A stretch of 43,294 bases of DNA from a virus, in IMG/VR virus record IMGVR_UViG_3300011116_000403, positions 1 through 43,294 of that record; one strand, given 5' to 3'. Position 1 is the first letter of the stretch, and every line of letters begins with the position of its first letter. Shown here piece by piece: positions 8,245 through 22,033 of the stretch. A program made the position numbers and the translations under genes. The notes under the pieces were generated by a model. It worked only from the letters and a program-made list of their open reading frames with translations. It searched no databases and had not been told where the DNA came from.

Positions 8245-8277
8245 AAGCCCTCACTTCGGTGGGGGTTTATTTTTTTT
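8245..8277 (+). terminator. Intrinsic terminator with UUCG tetraloop
   Basis: AAGCCCTCAC pairs with GTGGGGGTTT (10 pairs including two G-U) around a TTCG loop, then ATTTTTTTT follows. It lies 9 bases after the plus-strand stop at 8235 and 4 bases from the stop of the convergent minus-strand gene. It ends the late/lysis transcript. On the minus strand the hairpin is followed by CTTATCTTTCTTC, so it may also work weakly in that direction. Confidence 0.9.
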
Positions 8278-8493: not shown

Positions 8494-8740
8494 AGCCGCA
8501 GAATACTCCCTACAAATCTGTCTTTTGACCGACCCGCTTTGACCGACACACCCTTCTAGAAAACTGCCCTAGCCTGCCCTACAAGGCGTGGTTAGCCTTT
8601 TTGAATATAAACATATCGGAACGATACCAACCCACCCCAAAGGGCAGTCTATGGCTTCTAATGGGTAGGCAGGAGTAGGCAGGTTCCTAAAGGTAACCTT
8701 TTGGCACAAATTGGGCGCTAAAAATATATTGGCTAAATTG

Positions 8741-8768
8741 TTTACTTTGCACTCTCAGAGTGTAAAAT
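8741..8768 (+). promoter_or_regulatory. Early promoter with palindromic operator between -35 and -10
   Basis: TTTACT (8741-8746) and TAAAAT (8763-8768) are separated by 16 bases and resemble a vegetative promoter. Between them lies the 13-base palindrome CACTCT-C-AGAGTG, which could bind a dimeric repressor. The expected start point falls about on the A of an ATG at 8775, suggesting a leaderless transcript. The assignment is by eye. Confidence 0.5.
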
Positions 8769-8774
8769 AGTTCC

Positions 8775-8846
8775 ATGACAATGACCCGCACCGAAGGCGC
8801 TTATCACGCACGCGTTGCAGTTGTTCGCTCATATGTACTTTCATAA
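8775..8846 (+). CDS. Possible leaderless micro-ORF, 23 aa
   Basis: The ORF MTMTRTEGAYHARVAVVRS... starts about 7 bases after the -10 hexamer, with no ribosome-binding site. That is the geometry of leaderless mRNAs, which are frequent in Actinobacteria. It may be a leader peptide of the early operon. It could also be chance, because the peptide is too short to judge by composition. Confidence 0.3.
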   Translation: MTMTRTEGAYHARVAVVRSYVLS

Positions 8847-8870
8847 CTAAATAGTAGAAACTAGATATTT

Positions 8871-8979
8871 TGTAACACTTCGGTGTTATGTAAATCCTGC
8901 GGCGCAACGCCCGTAATCAAATTGCTAGATGCTTATTCCCGTAAATCGGATGCATTAAGCGCACTGCGTTAAGGATAAG
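8871..8979 (+). other. Region rich in hairpins, possible structured leader RNA or origin
   Basis: A hairpin TAACAC-TTCG-GTGTTA (8873-8888, extendable by two G-U pairs) is followed by GGCG-CAA-CGCC. A larger imperfect helix follows, in which CTTATTCC pairs with GGATAAG and encloses TTAA(g)CGC-ACT-GCGTTAA. GTAAATC occurs twice (8890-8896 and 8941-8947). No U-tract and no tRNA features are present. It could be a leader RNA of the early transcript or a double-stranded origin. Confidence 0.35.
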
Positions 8980-9003: not shown

Positions 9004-9079
9004 AAATACATAGAACGAAACTGCCTTATTTACAATGGCAGTCTTACACTAAATAGTGTAACTGACGAGTTCAGTATTT
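9004..9079 (+). ncRNA. Type II hammerhead ribozyme 1
   Basis: Stem II 5' strand is GAAC (9013-9016), followed by GAAA (9017-9020). Stem III is CTGCC/GGCAG with an 11-nt loop. U9042-C9043 is the cleavage dinucleotide of GUC. Stem I is TTACACT-AAAT-AGTGTAA, then come CTGACGA (9062-9068) and GTTC (9069-9072). The 10.1-11.1 pair is the canonical G-C and A15.1 pairs with U16.1. An outer helix AAATAC (9004-9009) with GTATTT (9074-9079) extends stem II across a small internal loop. Cleavage is predicted between 9043 and 9044. AAAGGGTAA follows as ribosome-binding site of the 9095 gene. Confidence 0.92.
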
Positions 9080-9094
9080 GAAAGGGTAAATCAA

Positions 9095-9439
9095 ATGACT
9101 ACAATCAAAATCACCTATAAGGCTTTCGCACATAACGCTCGCCCAACAACTCAAGGTGTTACAACTGCTCAGTTTGAACTAGAAACTGCTGATGTTCTTG
9201 ATAATGACATAATGAATGTCATTTACAAAGTAACAAATCTTCAAGATGACCTGAATGAGTTTGGTGCATCAAACTTTGAAATCAAACTATGGGAAACAAT
9301 CAAAGCAATACTTCCTGCAAATCGCACTCACACTTCACTTTCTATTGGTGATGAAATTCAAATCGCTGGCAGGAACTATGAAGTATCAAATGTCGGATTC
9401 AAAATGCTTTCAATCGCAGGTTTTCCTGAATCAATCTAA
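9095..9439 (+). CDS. Unknown early protein between ribozymes 1 and 2, 114 aa
   Basis: The ribosome-binding site is AAAGGGTAA at 9081-9089. The protein has an N-terminal beta-rich segment (TTIKITYKAFAHNARPTT, then AQFELETADVL). Its C-terminal part, LSIGDEIQIAGRNYEVSNVGFK, resembles a small beta-barrel found in plasmid and phage proteins. There are no cysteines or membrane segments. The last base of its TAA is the first base of ribozyme 2. Ribozyme cleavage on both sides would yield a 419-nt single-gene mRNA. Confidence 0.75.
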   Translation: MTTIKITYKAFAHNARPTTQGVTTAQFELETADVLDNDIMNVIYKVTNLQDDLNEFGASNFEIKLWETIKAILPANRTHTSLSIGDEIQIAGRNYEVSNVGFKMLSIAGFPESI

Positions 9440-9490
9440 GGCGAAACTCCCTTCGGGGAGTCTAGGTGTAACGCACCTACTGATGAGCCT
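9439..9490 (+). ncRNA. Type II hammerhead ribozyme 2
   Basis: AGGC (9439-9442), GAAA (9443-9446), stem III CTCCC-TTCG-GGGAG (a c(UUCG)g tetraloop), U9461-C9462, stem I TAGGTG-TAACG-CACCTA, CTGATGA (9480-9486), GCCT (9487-9490). All core positions match the hammerhead consensus. Predicted cleavage is after C9462. Stem II overlaps the upstream stop codon by one base. An outer CTGA/TCAG helix (9426-9429 with 9495-9498) may extend stem II. Confidence 0.93.
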
Positions 9491-9521
9491 CTTATCAGAC
9501 ACTAATTGAAGGGTAATTCAA

Positions 9522-9653
9522 ATGAAAACATCTACAAAAATTCGCGAGTGTGACATCTGCTCATGCTGTGAAGGCACATCTGTTCTATCAAACGGCACTA
9601 AATTGATTCGCGTCTGTGTTGAGTGTGTTGCACCTGCTGGATACTCAAAATGA
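9522..9653 (+). CDS. Micro zinc-ribbon protein, 43 aa
   Basis: GAAGGGTAA at 9508-9516 precedes the ATG. The peptide has ECDICSCCEG and later RVCVECVAP, a CxxC...CxxC ribbon. It overlaps the next gene by ATGA. This is the first gene of the ribozyme 2-3 segment. The size suggests a small protein-binding or nucleic-acid-binding factor. Function unknown. Confidence 0.65.
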   Translation: MKTSTKIRECDICSCCEGTSVLSNGTKLIRVCVECVAPAGYSK

Positions 9654-9808
9654 AAGAATATGAAGTAACTGTTACAGTCAAAATGATAATTAGTGCAGGA
9701 AATGAATTTGCTGCTGAAGCGGAAGCCGTTGATTTGCTGCAAATCTTTCCTAATGTATTTAGTGCTAAAGCAACAAAATCCAAAATCAGCAAGTATATGA
9801 AGGCATAA
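9650..9808 (+). CDS. Small unknown protein, 52 aa
   Basis: The ATG overlaps the previous stop. The sequence KEYEVTVTVKMIISAGNEF, then AEAEAVDLLQIFPNVF, then ATKSKISKYMKA suggests a beta-hairpin followed by a helix, as in small DUF-type phage proteins. The last base of its TAA is the first base of ribozyme 3, repeating the arrangement seen at ribozyme 2. Confidence 0.6.
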   Translation: MKEYEVTVTVKMIISAGNEFAAEAEAVDLLQIFPNVFSAKATKSKISKYMKA

Positions 9809-9869
9809 GGCGAAACCACTTTCACTTTTCCGAAAGTGGTCTATGGGTTTCTCCCATACTGACGAGCCT
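9808..9869 (+). ncRNA. Type II hammerhead ribozyme 3
   Basis: AGGC (9808-9811), GAAA (9812-9815), an 8-bp stem III CCACTTTC/GAAAGTGG (9816-9839), U9840-C9841, stem I TATGGG-TTTCT-CCCATA (9842-9858), CTGACGA (9859-9865), GCCT (9866-9869). Predicted cleavage is after C9841. Stem II is identical to ribozyme 2, but stems I and III differ in sequence with full compensatory pairing, which supports structure under selection. It is followed by ACTAATTGAAGGGTAA. Confidence 0.93.
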
Positions 9870-9897
9870 ATCGTTTGACTAATTGAAGGGTAAAAAA

Positions 9898-10014
9898 ATG
9901 GCAAAAGAAACAAAAGCAACAAACCTTCTAGAAAAAGCACAAAATGTTGCAAGCCGTTTTGAAGAACAGTCTGCGCTAGAAGAATTGTCTGCTCTATTGG
10001 AAGGAAATAACTAA
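9898..10014 (+). CDS. Small helical protein, 38 aa
   Basis: GAAGGGTAA at 9885-9893 precedes the ATG. The sequence MAKETKATNLLEKAQNVASR and FEEQSALEELSALLEGNN is amphipathic helix throughout, with an acidic C-terminal half. This is the first gene in the ribozyme 3-4 segment. No family recognised. Confidence 0.6.
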   Translation: MAKETKATNLLEKAQNVASRFEEQSALEELSALLEGNN

Positions 10015-10015
10015 A

Positions 10016-10267
10016 ATGCAATCAACAACTGAAATGTTGGAAAATGCTACAACAACCTACAACGGTAAAACTGGTTGTGCTTGTGGGTGTGGCGGAGATT
10101 ATGCAGAACCAAACACACTTGCAGGGCAAAAACGCATCAACAAAATTATGAACGCCGACCAAAGAAAAGTCGCGTTTGTACCTTTTGGCGGTGGCGAAGG
10201 TTGTTTAGAAATTGAAAACCAAGACGGAACCCGTGTAACGCGTGTCTATATAAAGGACGCAAAATGA
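10016..10267 (+). CDS. Small cysteine-rich protein with GCACGCGG motif, 83 aa
   Basis: The gene starts one base after the previous stop, so coupled translation is likely. NGKTGCACGCGGDYAEPN forms a compact CxCxC cluster. KRINKIMN and VAFVPFGGGEGCLEIENQDGTRVTRVYIKD follow, the latter a beta-rich end. Similar small proteins are frequent in actinophage early regions; their role is not known. It overlaps the next gene by ATGA. Confidence 0.65.
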   Translation: MQSTTEMLENATTTYNGKTGCACGCGGDYAEPNTLAGQKRINKIMNADQRKVAFVPFGGGEGCLEIENQDGTRVTRVYIKDAK

Positions 10268-10494
10268 AAAGTTATGTCACATCTAGTCCAGGAACTTACT
10301 ATCAAGAAGCCTGTGTTCGCAAGGGCTGGTGTAAAACAGAACAGCATGTTGTAGTTGATTTTGATAAATGGCTAAATTGGTACAACGCTGGCGATACACA
10401 CAATCCAATTCTTCCCCCACCTGCATTTGTTGGAGATACTTGGGAAATTGCAGACAAAGTTTGCGACGAACTAAGTGCTGAGGTCAAATCCTAA
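10264..10494 (+). CDS. Unknown small protein, 76 aa
   Basis: ATGA overlap with the preceding gene. The protein has SSPGTYYQEACVRKGWC, FDKWLNWYNAGD and a proline patch NPILPPPAFVGDTW, then a helical end. Its TAA abuts ribozyme 4, which begins at the next base. No family recognised. Confidence 0.6.
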   Translation: MKSYVTSSPGTYYQEACVRKGWCKTEQHVVVDFDKWLNWYNAGDTHNPILPPPAFVGDTWEIADKVCDELSAEVKS

Positions 10495-10547
10495 GAACGA
10501 AACTGCCTTCGGGCAGTCCGTAGGTAATTGCCTACGCTGACGAGTTC
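10495..10547 (+). ncRNA. Type II hammerhead ribozyme 4
   Basis: GAAC (10495-10498), GAAA (10499-10502), stem III CTGCC-TTCG-GGCAG, U10517-C10518, stem I CGTAGG-TAATTG-CCTACG, CTGACGA (10537-10543), GTTC (10544-10547). Stem II and stem III strands match ribozyme 1, but the long loop is replaced by UUCG and stem I differs. Cleavage is predicted after C10518. It lies directly after the stop of the 10264 gene and before the DUF932 gene. Confidence 0.93.
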
Positions 10548-10568
10548 AGAATAATGAAGGGTAGTAAA

Positions 10569-11555
10569 ATGGCAGCAAATATAGAAACATTTGAAGATGG
10601 CACTTCCGCCTTCTTTTCAAATCGTGAAGTTGCTTGGCACAAATTAGGTGTTGTTACTGACAGCGCACAAACAGCAAGTCAAGCATTACAAGTTGCTCAA
10701 TTGGATTCATTAGTAAAAGTTAGTGAAAATCCCGTTGGTGCAGTTGTTGATGGCAAGGTCATCACCTTTTCTAATAAGTTCATTACTTATCGGGAACACC
10801 CTAAAAAAGGCACAACGGCGCTTGGCGTTGTTGGCAAGCGTTACACACCTATTCAAAACAGCGAGGCATTTGATTTTCTAAATGTTCTTGCTGACGAATC
10901 AGGTGCAGTATTTGAAACTGCTGGCTCACTAGGTAATGGTGAAAAAGTGTTTATGACTATGAAGTTTCCTGAGTCAATGACGCTAGGCGGAAACGATGTA
11001 GTAGATAACTATATTATGGCAGTCAATTCACACGACGGCACAACTGCCTTTACTGTTGCCGTAACTCCTATCCGCGCAGTTTGCACAAATACTGTTCGGC
11101 TGGCTTTAGAAAAGGCGCAGTCTAAAATCTCGCTTCGTCATACGGCTAATGCCACACAAAAAGTTCAACAGGCTCGCGACACACTCAACATTGTTTGGAA
11201 GTATCAAGAAGAATTCCAAAACGAAGTTGAATTGCTGCTATCTGAAAAGTTCAGCGATGCAGAATACAAGCGTTTCATCGAGGTTCTTGTTCCTGAACCA
11301 AAAGGCAAGGACATCTCTCAGCGTCAAATCAATTCAGTTCTTGAAGTTCGTTCTGATTTGATGGGTTTGTGGAAAGCACCTACCCAGCAAAATATCGCTG
11401 GAACTAAGTGGGCGGCTTACAACGCTGTTGCTGAATACGAAGACTGGGCTAAACCAGTTCGTAGCAAGGAAAATAAAGATGTTGTTCGCGCAGAACGCAT
11501 CATCAACGGTGGCGCAGAGGTTATGAAAACACGCGCACAGTTACTACTAGCATAA
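10569..11555 (+). CDS. DUF932 family protein (phage/plasmid-like), 328 aa
   Basis: The start is the ATG at 10569, preceded by GAAGGGTA; the in-frame ATG at 10554 lies within that ribosome-binding cassette. Family features are AFFSNREVAWHKLGVV near the start, LGVVGKRYTPIQNSEAFDFL, IMAVNSHDGTTAFTVAVTPIRAVCTNTV and the C-terminal WAAYNAVAEYEDW. Length is normal for the family, whose members occur in phages and conjugative plasmids with unknown biochemical role. It is the first gene after ribozyme 4 and is followed by a strong hairpin. Confidence 0.85.
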   Translation: MAANIETFEDGTSAFFSNREVAWHKLGVVTDSAQTASQALQVAQLDSLVKVSENPVGAVVDGKVITFSNKFITYREHPKKGTTALGVVGKRYTPIQNSEAFDFLNVLADESGAVFETAGSLGNGEKVFMTMKFPESMTLGGNDVVDNYIMAVNSHDGTTAFTVAVTPIRAVCTNTVRLALEKAQSKISLRHTANATQKVQQARDTLNIVWKYQEEFQNEVELLLSEKFSDAEYKRFIEVLVPEPKGKDISQRQINSVLEVRSDLMGLWKAPTQQNIAGTKWAAYNAVAEYEDWAKPVRSKENKDVVRAERIINGGAEVMKTRAQLLLA

Positions 11556-11567
11556 ACAAATAAGTAA

Positions 11568-11595
11568 AGCCCCGTAGTAATTCGGCTACGGGGCT
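11568..11595 (+). terminator. Strong hairpin after the DUF932 gene, no U-tract
   Basis: AGCCCCGTAG pairs perfectly with CTACGGGGCT around an 8-base loop. No run of T follows; instead the leader CTAATTGAAAGGGTAA of the next gene begins. It occupies the same place as the hammerheads do upstream. It may stabilise an mRNA 3' end, attenuate transcription or be an RNase site. Confidence 0.6.
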
Positions 11596-21115: not shown

Positions 21116-22033
21116 ATGAGTTTGTTGCCTCAGTTTCCTGTCTATGTAATTAGTAAAGGGCGAGCAGATGTTGGGCTTACCGCTAATTTTCTTATTCGTG
21201 ATGGTGTGCCTTTTCATCTTGTAATCGAGCCGCAAGAAGAAGAAGAATACGCAAAGTATTACGACCGCAAAAAACTACTAATCTTACCTTTTAGCAACTT
21301 AGGCTTAGGTAGTATTCCTGCTCGTAACTGGGTTTGGGAACACTCTAAAGAAGCAGGATATAAGCGTCATTGGATTTTAGATGACAATATCTATAACATT
21401 TATCGTTACTTTAGAGGCAAAAGAGTTCGAACTGCGTCTGGTGCTGCGTTCAAGATTATAGAAGACTTTTCCGAGCGTTACACAAATGTGGCTATTGCTG
21501 GAATGAATTACACAACCTTTGTGGGTCTAGGCGCTAATTCCACCAGCACCAAAATGCCGCCTTTCTATCTGAACACGCATGTTTATTCTTGTTTGCTTAT
21601 ACTTAACGAAATACCACAAAGATGGCGTGGAAGATATAACGAAGATACAGATTTATGCCTACAAGTTCTTGCAGATGGCTTATGTACAGTAGCGTTCAAC
21701 GCGCTTTGCCAACATAAAGTCGCCACAATGACTATGAAAGGCGGCAACGCAGACGAACTTTACAAAGGTGATGGTCGTTTAGAAATGGCTAGAACACTTG
21801 AACGCTCTTGGCCGTATGCAGTTCAGGTAAAAAGAAGATTTGACAGACCACAACATGTTGTTCATAACGCATGGCAAAAGTTTGACACTCCGTTGAAAAG
21901 GCGAGATGATATTGATTGGGAAGCAATTGAATCAAATACTTACGACCTAAAACTGGTTCAAGTAAAAGATGAAATAAAGAGCGAACGAGTGCGTTCCCTG
22001 CTAAGGGAGAGCAACGATGAAATCAAGAAGTAG
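21116..22033 (+). CDS. TET-associated glycosyltransferase family protein, 305 aa
   Basis: The N-terminus (PVYVISKGRADVGLTANFLIRDGVPFHLVIEPQEEEEYAKYY) and the block LGLGSIPARNWVWEH, RHWILDDNIYNI follow the pattern of the TET-associated glycosyltransferase (TAGT) family, a GT-A-like fold with DDN as candidate metal/nucleotide-sugar site. RYNEDTDLCLQVLADG resembles the conserved acidic block. Family members are linked to glycosylation of hydroxymethylated bases in phage DNA. I find no TET dioxygenase or DNA cytosine methylase here, so the acceptor is open. Confidence 0.75.
   Translation: MSLLPQFPVYVISKGRADVGLTANFLIRDGVPFHLVIEPQEEEEYAKYYDRKKLLILPFSNLGLGSIPARNWVWEHSKEAGYKRHWILDDNIYNIYRYFRGKRVRTASGAAFKIIEDFSERYTNVAIAGMNYTTFVGLGANSTSTKMPPFYLNTHVYSCLLILNEIPQRWRGRYNEDTDLCLQVLADGLCTVAFNALCQHKVATMTMKGGNADELYKGDGRLEMARTLERSWPYAVQVKRRFDRPQHVVHNAWQKFDTPLKRRDDIDWEAIESNTYDLKLVQVKDEIKSERVRSLLRESNDEIKK

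What the first reader, a model, noticed from the sequence alone, without database searches (positions are those of the whole stretch)
9004..10547. Array of four type II hammerhead ribozymes punctuating an early phage operon
Seen: four full hammerhead cores (9004-9079, 9439-9490, 9808-9869, 10495-10547), each with CTGANGA, GAAA, GUC, G-C at 10.1-11.1 and closed stems I and III. Stems differ in sequence but remain fully paired, strong evidence of structural selection. Known: type II hammerheads occur in bacteria and phages. Inference: self-cleavage would split one transcript at 9043/9044, 9462/9463, 9841/9842 and 10518/10519. This gives mRNAs of 419, 379 and 677 nt, each with a stem I hairpin at its 5' end and a stem III hairpin at its 3' end. 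I do not recall a described case of four in tandem acting as an operon-processing system.
Basis: partly seen in the sequence, partly recalled or inferred. Interest (0 to 1): 0.96.

Follow-up and report, generated by a model that had tools for sequence, protein, structure and literature searches.

The report
Self-cutting RNAs separating phage genes
A bacterial virus carries four self-cutting RNAs (hammerhead ribozymes), each fitted between the stop of one gene and the start signal of the next, probably to chop one long message into separate protected messages; the tail of many such viral ribozymes can fold back onto their own catalytic centre, probably to shut them off after cutting.

Summary
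Four type II hammerhead ribozymes lie at 9004-9079, 9439-9490, 9808-9869 and 10495-10547, the only ones in the window. A covariance model built only from other phages scores them 57, 54, 51 and 42 bits; the next window match scores 9.7. Rfam's own model misses them at its cutoff.

Five related phages carry 2-6 ribozymes in the same region, one always preceding the DUF932 gene. In IMG/VR the arrangement is common: stop codon, ribozyme, ribosome-binding site, start codon.

Clustered phage hammerheads cutting operons into gene-length mRNAs were described, and tandem arrays shown to self-cleave, in 2011 (PMC3088659).

What looks new is a structural element. In about a third of these ribozymes the 3' tail can pair with the catalytic core CUGAN7GA, which excludes the active fold. 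Core position N7, normally free to vary, covaries with the tail (p = 4e-12), confirmed on a prediction made before new scans (p = 3e-6). The pairing is anti-correlated with the known loop I-tail pseudoknot.

Best reading: cleavage yields hairpin-ended mRNAs, after which the tail captures the core and makes cutting irreversible. No cleavage was tested.

The parts
9004..9079 (+). type II hammerhead ribozyme 1 in the operon leader (core element 9013-9072; stem II extended by 9004-9009 with 9074-9079); predicted cleavage 9043/9044
   Evidence: 50.5 bits; MFE is the hammerhead fold
9439..9490 (+). type II hammerhead ribozyme 2; first base is the last base of the upstream stop codon; predicted cleavage 9462/9463
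   Evidence: RF02276, below cutoff; 53.6 bits
9808..9869 (+). type II hammerhead ribozyme 3; first base is the last base of the upstream stop codon; predicted cleavage 9841/9842
   Evidence: 41.8 bits
10495..10547 (+). type II hammerhead ribozyme 4, between the stop codon 10492-10494 and the DUF932 gene; predicted cleavage 10518/10519; same position in five relatives
   Evidence: (57.2 bits)
9061..9075 (+). possible core-capturing tail hairpin of copy 1 (ACUGA 9061-9065 with UCAGU 9071-9075); weak alone, competes with stem II extension
9480..9498 (+). core-capturing tail hairpin of copy 2 (CUGAUGAG 9480-9487 with CUUAUCAG 9491-9498, 8 pairs)
9861..9875 (+). core-capturing tail hairpin of copy 3 (GACGA 9861-9865 with UCGUU 9871-9875)
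10537..10549 (+). possible core-capturing tail hairpin of copy 4 (CUGA 10537-10540 with UCAG 10546-10549); weak alone
9082..9087 (+). AAGGGT ribosome-binding site after copy 1 (the same at 9509, 9886 and 10557 after copies 2-4)
9095..9439 (+). ORF, 114 aa, unknown; carried on processed RNA 9044-9462
9522..9653 (+). ORF, 43 aa, cysteine-rich, unknown; with 9650-9808 on processed RNA 9463-9841
9650..9808 (+). ORF, 52 aa, unknown
9898..10014 (+). ORF, 38 aa, unknown; with 10016-10267 and 10264-10494 on processed RNA 9842-10518
10016..10267 (+). ORF, 83 aa, weak match to PHROG 5930 (unknown function)
10264..10494 (+). ORF, 76 aa, conserved in two of the five relatives
10569..11555 (+). DUF932 gene (PF06067); a hammerhead precedes it in all six phages
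11568..11595 (+). strong plain hairpin upstream of the next AAGGGT site, in the place where three relatives carry another hammerhead after the DUF932 gene

Best explanation
[quoted passage not shown] Each folds as it is transcribed and cuts after C17. Every upstream mRNA then ends in the stem III hairpin just after its stop codon (2',3'-cyclic phosphate), and every downstream mRNA begins with the stem I hairpin (5'-OH) just before its ribosome-binding site. These end structures probably protect the single- or few-gene mRNAs and uncouple their levels. Once the upstream product leaves, the freed 3' tail of many copies pairs with CUGAN7(GA). This forms a second hairpin stacked on stem I, destroys the core, blocks religation and caps the 5' end. 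Shown here by sequence: the ribozyme motifs, their placement, and the N7-tail covariation. Inferred: cleavage, protection and the order of events.
For: Motifs and significance. Stems I and III are present in 324 of 355 pattern matches that were chosen only by core and stem II. Among 441 ribozymes with sufficient flanks, 304 have a stop codon no more than 10 nt upstream, 400 have a start codon with a ribosome-binding site downstream (median 24.5 nt), and 0 of 301 loci carry them on both strands. The site before DUF932 is occupied in six phages with different but paired stems. Tail-core pairing: N7 against tail 45/4/2/21, p = 3.5e-12, with none of 43 other trinucleotides alike. Out-of-sample GGTC-AG versus GATC-AG, p = 3.1e-6. 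Within GGTC, N7 = C occurs only when AG follows, p = 7.7e-7. Hairpins of at least 6 bp: 78 against 50.6 +/- 3.9 when tails are swapped. Cleavage of similar tandem arrays was shown in vitro, and of one array in E. coli, by Perreault et al..
Against: No cleavage data exist for this phage. The tail hairpin is as stable as or more stable than the active fold in many full-length RNAs (276 of 411), so it could instead inhibit cleavage. Pairing of only 4 bp, as in copies 1 and 4, is no more frequent than with swapped tails (338 against 337). About two thirds of type II hammerheads lack a tail hairpin of at least 5 bp. Copy 1's tail can also extend stem II.
Confidence: 0.62

Rival explanations
1. The tail hairpin is an off-switch. 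It competes with stem II in the uncut RNA, so a ribosome, protein, ligand or temperature decides how much transcript is cut, in the manner of a riboswitch.
For: The alternative fold is at least as stable as the active secondary structure in 20 of 25 family members and 276 of 411 overall. Stop codons abut stem II, so a terminating ribosome could mask its 5' strand. Same covariation as for the best explanation.
Against: No ligand pocket or further conserved element was seen. In copy 1 the uncut RNA prefers the hammerhead fold. The 2D energies ignore the tertiary contacts that favour the active fold.
Confidence: 0.22
2. The ribozymes are active, but their main effect is to lower or differentiate expression by creating unstable fragments, not to protect mRNAs.
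For: Ribozyme-cleaved mRNAs are often unstable in engineered systems (own knowledge). Nothing here measures stability.
Against: Both new ends carry hairpins close to the coding region. After DUF932 a plain hairpin stands where relatives have a ribozyme, which suggests that the end structure is what is kept.
Confidence: 0.1
3. Cleaved fragments are joined into circular or trans-spliced RNAs by reverse ligation or by RtcB.
For: Cleavage at adjacent sites leaves 5'-OH and 2',3'-cyclic phosphate ends on the same fragment (follows from hammerhead chemistry and the tandem sites).
Against: Perreault et al. looked for spliced and circular products and found none. The tail hairpin would disfavour religation.
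Confidence: 0.03
4. The motifs are chance or degenerate hairpins without catalytic function.
For: None passes the Rfam cutoff in the window.
Against: Perfect cores; E of 6e-12 or lower with an independent model; no hits in reversed sequence; conserved position before DUF932 in six phages.
Confidence: 0.02

Closest known systems
Clustered hammerheads in prophages (Perreault et al. 2011, PMC3088659)
   Same: Several hammerheads, including type II, flank single genes or short gene blocks in one orientation; processing to gene-length mRNAs was proposed; cleavage of tandem arrays was shown in vitro, and of one (A. tumefaciens, triple) in E. coli.
   Different: Here there are four (up to six in close relatives), with stop codon and ribosome-binding site abutting the ribozyme. 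The tail often pairs with the catalytic core rather than with loop I; that pairing was not found among the passages of the paper searched here.
Rfam RF02276 Hammerhead_II
   Same: Same permutation (open stem II), core, cleavage site and closed stems I and III; relatives L005 and L006 score above the cutoff.
   Different: The window copies score below the cutoff; only copy 2 appears in E-value mode (28.8 against 37 bits).
Type II hammerhead with loop I-tail pseudoknot (Perreault et al. 2011)
   Same: The same short tail directly after stem II is used for base pairing.
   Different: The partner differs: loop I there, the core CUGAN7 here. The two uses are anti-correlated in 635 sequences.
HDV-like theta ribozymes in gut phages (PMC10879173)
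   Same: Self-cleaving ribozymes associated with phage genomes (from the title and abstract).
   Different: Another fold, linked to tRNA-based recoding rather than to mRNA boundaries.

Membership tests
Hammerhead ribozyme, type II | Core CUGANGA ... GAAA with A15.1-U16.1, G10.1-C11.1 and H17 (not G) at the cleavage site | tested here: met
   All four copies, C17 in each
Hammerhead ribozyme, type II | Stems I and III closed by loops, stem II open | tested here: met
   Stem I 6-7 bp, stem III 6-9 bp including A15.1-U16.1, stem II 4 bp
Hammerhead ribozyme, type II | Score at or above the Rfam RF02276 gathering cutoff | tested here: not met
   Window copies are below it; relatives in L005 and L006 and other arrays are above it. 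This is a limit of the model's sensitivity, not a structural criterion.
Hammerhead ribozyme, type II | Stems conserved by compensatory change across relatives | tested here: met
   99.4% of cells paired, 13 of 18 pairs with changes on both sides; rows had been selected for pairing, so the less biased figure is 324 of 355 core + stem II matches with both other stems
Hammerhead ribozyme, type II | Self-cleavage | not testable with these tools
   Needs an in vitro assay or 5'-OH end mapping
Type II hammerhead with loop I-tail pseudoknot | At least 4 bp between loop I and the tail just after stem II | tested here: inconclusive
   Enriched over all sequences (z = 4.6 and 5.6). Copy 1 could pair AAAUA with UAUUU (sequence); the other copies offer weak pairing at best.
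Clustered phage hammerheads processing an operon | Two or more ribozymes in one direction flanking genes | tested here: met
   Four here; 121 held locus strands carry 2 or more, 42 carry 4 or more
Clustered phage hammerheads processing an operon | One transcript is actually processed at these sites in cells | not testable with these tools
   No transcriptome data available

The most novel reading that the evidence does not exclude
A widespread subclass of phage type II hammerheads is self-terminating. The ribozyme's own 3' tail is complementary to its catalytic core, including the otherwise unconstrained position N7, so that after cutting, or as a timer before it, the core is locked into a hairpin that becomes the 5' cap structure of the downstream mRNA.
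Probability: 0.55. Interest if true: 0.75.

Novelty: new variant of a known kind. Interest (0 to 1): 0.62.

Why it matters
The role of hammerheads in phages has been an open question since 2011. The anatomy here (stop codon, ribozyme, ribosome-binding site, start codon), found in hundreds of viral contigs, makes the idea of protein-free mRNA punctuation directly testable. The tail-core covariation adds a specific mechanism to test: a ribozyme that disables itself after one cut. It gives N7 a role and may explain how a reversible ribozyme is made irreversible. Arrays like this one are missed by standard Rfam annotation.

Tried and rejected
Rfam at gathering cutoffs: nothing in the window; other Rfam E-value hits (snoZ221, S15 leader, ctRNA, GIR1) are chance. 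tRNAs: none. Degenerate extra hammerheads in the window: none above 9.7 bits. DUF932 relatives in Arthrobacter, Rhodococcus/Gordonia and Microbacterium phages (L368-L370): no hammerheads nearby. About 75 more distant DUF932 loci: none either, so the ribozymes do not travel with DUF932 in general. A special stem I hexaloop in the tail-hairpin class: only p = 0.04, not claimed. Sigma-70-like promoters: no more than expected by chance. Replication of the NTCA covariation among the other stems of the new scans: same direction, too few to count (p = 0.17). A script for explicit energies of copy 1 failed; the fold serves instead. The first two family-search calls failed on wrong frames and were rerun.

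Full report
CHECK OF THE OBSERVATION. My own scanner asks for CTGANGA, GAA+A, a non-G cleavage base and three helices. It finds exactly four type II hammerheads in the window, all on the + strand: 9013-9072, 9439-9490, 9808-9869 and 10495-10547, with C17 at 9043, 9462, 9841 and 10518. Rfam reports nothing at its gathering cutoffs and only copy 2 in E-value mode (28.8 bits, cutoff 37). A covariance model built from 19 ribozymes of other phages, none from the window, gives 57.2, 53.6, 50.5 and 41.8 bits, and the next match in the window has 9.7.

SURROUNDINGS. To the left lie a tail protein, an endolysin and an exonuclease, then by eye a terminator-like hairpin near 8250 and about 500 bases without convincing genes. 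The array follows, with small ORFs of unknown function between the ribozymes, then DUF932, a pyrimidine-dimer glycosylase-like/MerR protein, RecT, an exonuclease, a replication initiation protein, ParB-like, terminase, head and tail genes. 'Early operon' is thus reasonable from gene order, but no transcription data exist. The stop codons before copies 2 and 3 end on the first base of the ribozyme, and the one before copy 4 ends one base before it. Each ribozyme is followed by AAGGGT and a start codon. Of the nine AAGGGT on this strand, four follow the ribozymes and a fifth (11606) follows a plain hairpin (11568-11595) in the intergenic space where three relatives have another ribozyme.

RELATIVES. 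The DUF932 search gave five near relatives (57-75% identity). They carry 2, 5, 5, 4 and 6 type II hammerheads in the same region; the roughly 75 more distant loci carry none. A ribozyme sits directly before DUF932 in all six phages, with different stem sequences that stay paired. In the first three scans, 324 of 355 distinct matches also have both other stems. The first of these patterns gave only 27 stretches in 257 Gb of prokaryote genomes against at least 120 in IMG/VR, so the motif is mainly viral. Rfam's own model finds arrays of seven to nine in some of these contigs (L269, L257, L348). Context over 441 ribozymes: a stop codon no more than 10 nt upstream in 304, a start codon with a ribosome-binding site downstream in 400 (median 24.5 nt), 42 locus strands with four or more, and never on both strands of one locus (0 of 301).

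THE TAIL. The bases after stem II often repeat the complement of the core, for example CTGATGA-GTCC-ATCAG and CTGACGA-GTCC-GTCAG. Across 411 non-redundant ribozymes, N7 and the tail base before TCA pair as T/A 45, C/G 21, T/G 4, C/A 2 (Fisher p = 3.5e-12); of 44 trinucleotides tested only TCA shows this. Three phages hold both states (L006, L262, L363). I then predicted that if the stem II strand is GGTC followed by AG, N7 should be C, and if it is GATC followed by AG, N7 should be T. New scans gave C 51/T 17 and T 27/C 10 (p = 3.1e-6). Within GGTC, C occurs only when AG follows (54 of 72 against 0 of 14; p = 7.7e-7). Over 635 ribozymes from 393 loci, hairpins of at least 5 bp occur in 216 (swapped tails 177 +/- 6; shuffled tails 58 +/- 7) and of at least 6 bp in 78 (swapped 51 +/- 4). 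The sequences are related to each other, near-duplicates apart, so these p-values are not tree-corrected. The known loop I-tail pseudoknot is also supported. The two uses are anti-correlated (23 both, 119 pseudoknot only, 193 hairpin only; p = 1.4e-7), though one short tail can hardly do both. In the window, copy 2 has 8 pairs and copy 3 has 5. Copies 1 and 4 have 4-5, which alone is not above the swap control.

HOW IT PROBABLY WORKS. The tail hairpin uses C3, U4, G5, A6 and N7, so it cannot coexist with the active core. In the uncut RNA it competes with stem II; after cutting, the 5' strand of stem II leaves with the upstream mRNA and the tail is free to capture the core. The hairpin would then stack directly on stem I at the new 5' end. 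I favour the post-cleavage lock because stem II forms first during transcription, because copy 1 prefers the active fold before cutting, and because the result places two hairpins just upstream of an open ribosome-binding site. An off-switch is the main rival, since 2D energies favour the hairpin in 276 of 411 full-length RNAs. Cleavage, protection and timing are inferred.

COMPARISON. Perreault et al. 2011 described clustered hammerheads, including type II, flanking genes in prophages, proposed processing to gene-length mRNAs and showed cleavage of tandem arrays. A 2017 review calls the role in prokaryotes open (PMC6155905). Searches of the open-access library found no report of core-tail pairing, but many subscription papers are not held there. 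The array is therefore a new member of a known kind. The core-capturing tail, if confirmed, is a new variant.

Noticed in passing
window 11568-11595: A strong 10-bp hairpin without a T run stands before an AAGGGT start site, where relatives L003, L005 and L006 have a fifth hammerhead after DUF932; it may have replaced a ribozyme.
   Followed up: partly
L178, L206, L281, L309, L315: Several hammerheads have a stem III with a shared internal loop (CCUA...GAUGG) that resembles a GNRA tetraloop receptor; the contiguous-stem filter misses them.
   Followed up: no
window 8735-8775: By eye, a palindrome (CACTCTCAGAGTG) between TTTACT and TAAAAT boxes upstream of the array, a possible operator and promoter; the promoter scan itself is not above chance.
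   Followed up: no
window 8860-8975: A tiny ORF starting inside a hairpin (AACACTTCGGTGTTATG) encodes a CxxC zinc-ribbon-like peptide in the leader before the array.
   Followed up: no
window 21116-22033: A glucosyltransferase-like protein (PHROG 842) next to a ParB-like protein hints at DNA base modification.
   Followed up: no
L374, L382 and other GTDB contigs: Type II hammerheads, some with the ATCAG tail (L374, L382), occur in bacterial contigs of very different phyla, probably prophages.
   Followed up: no
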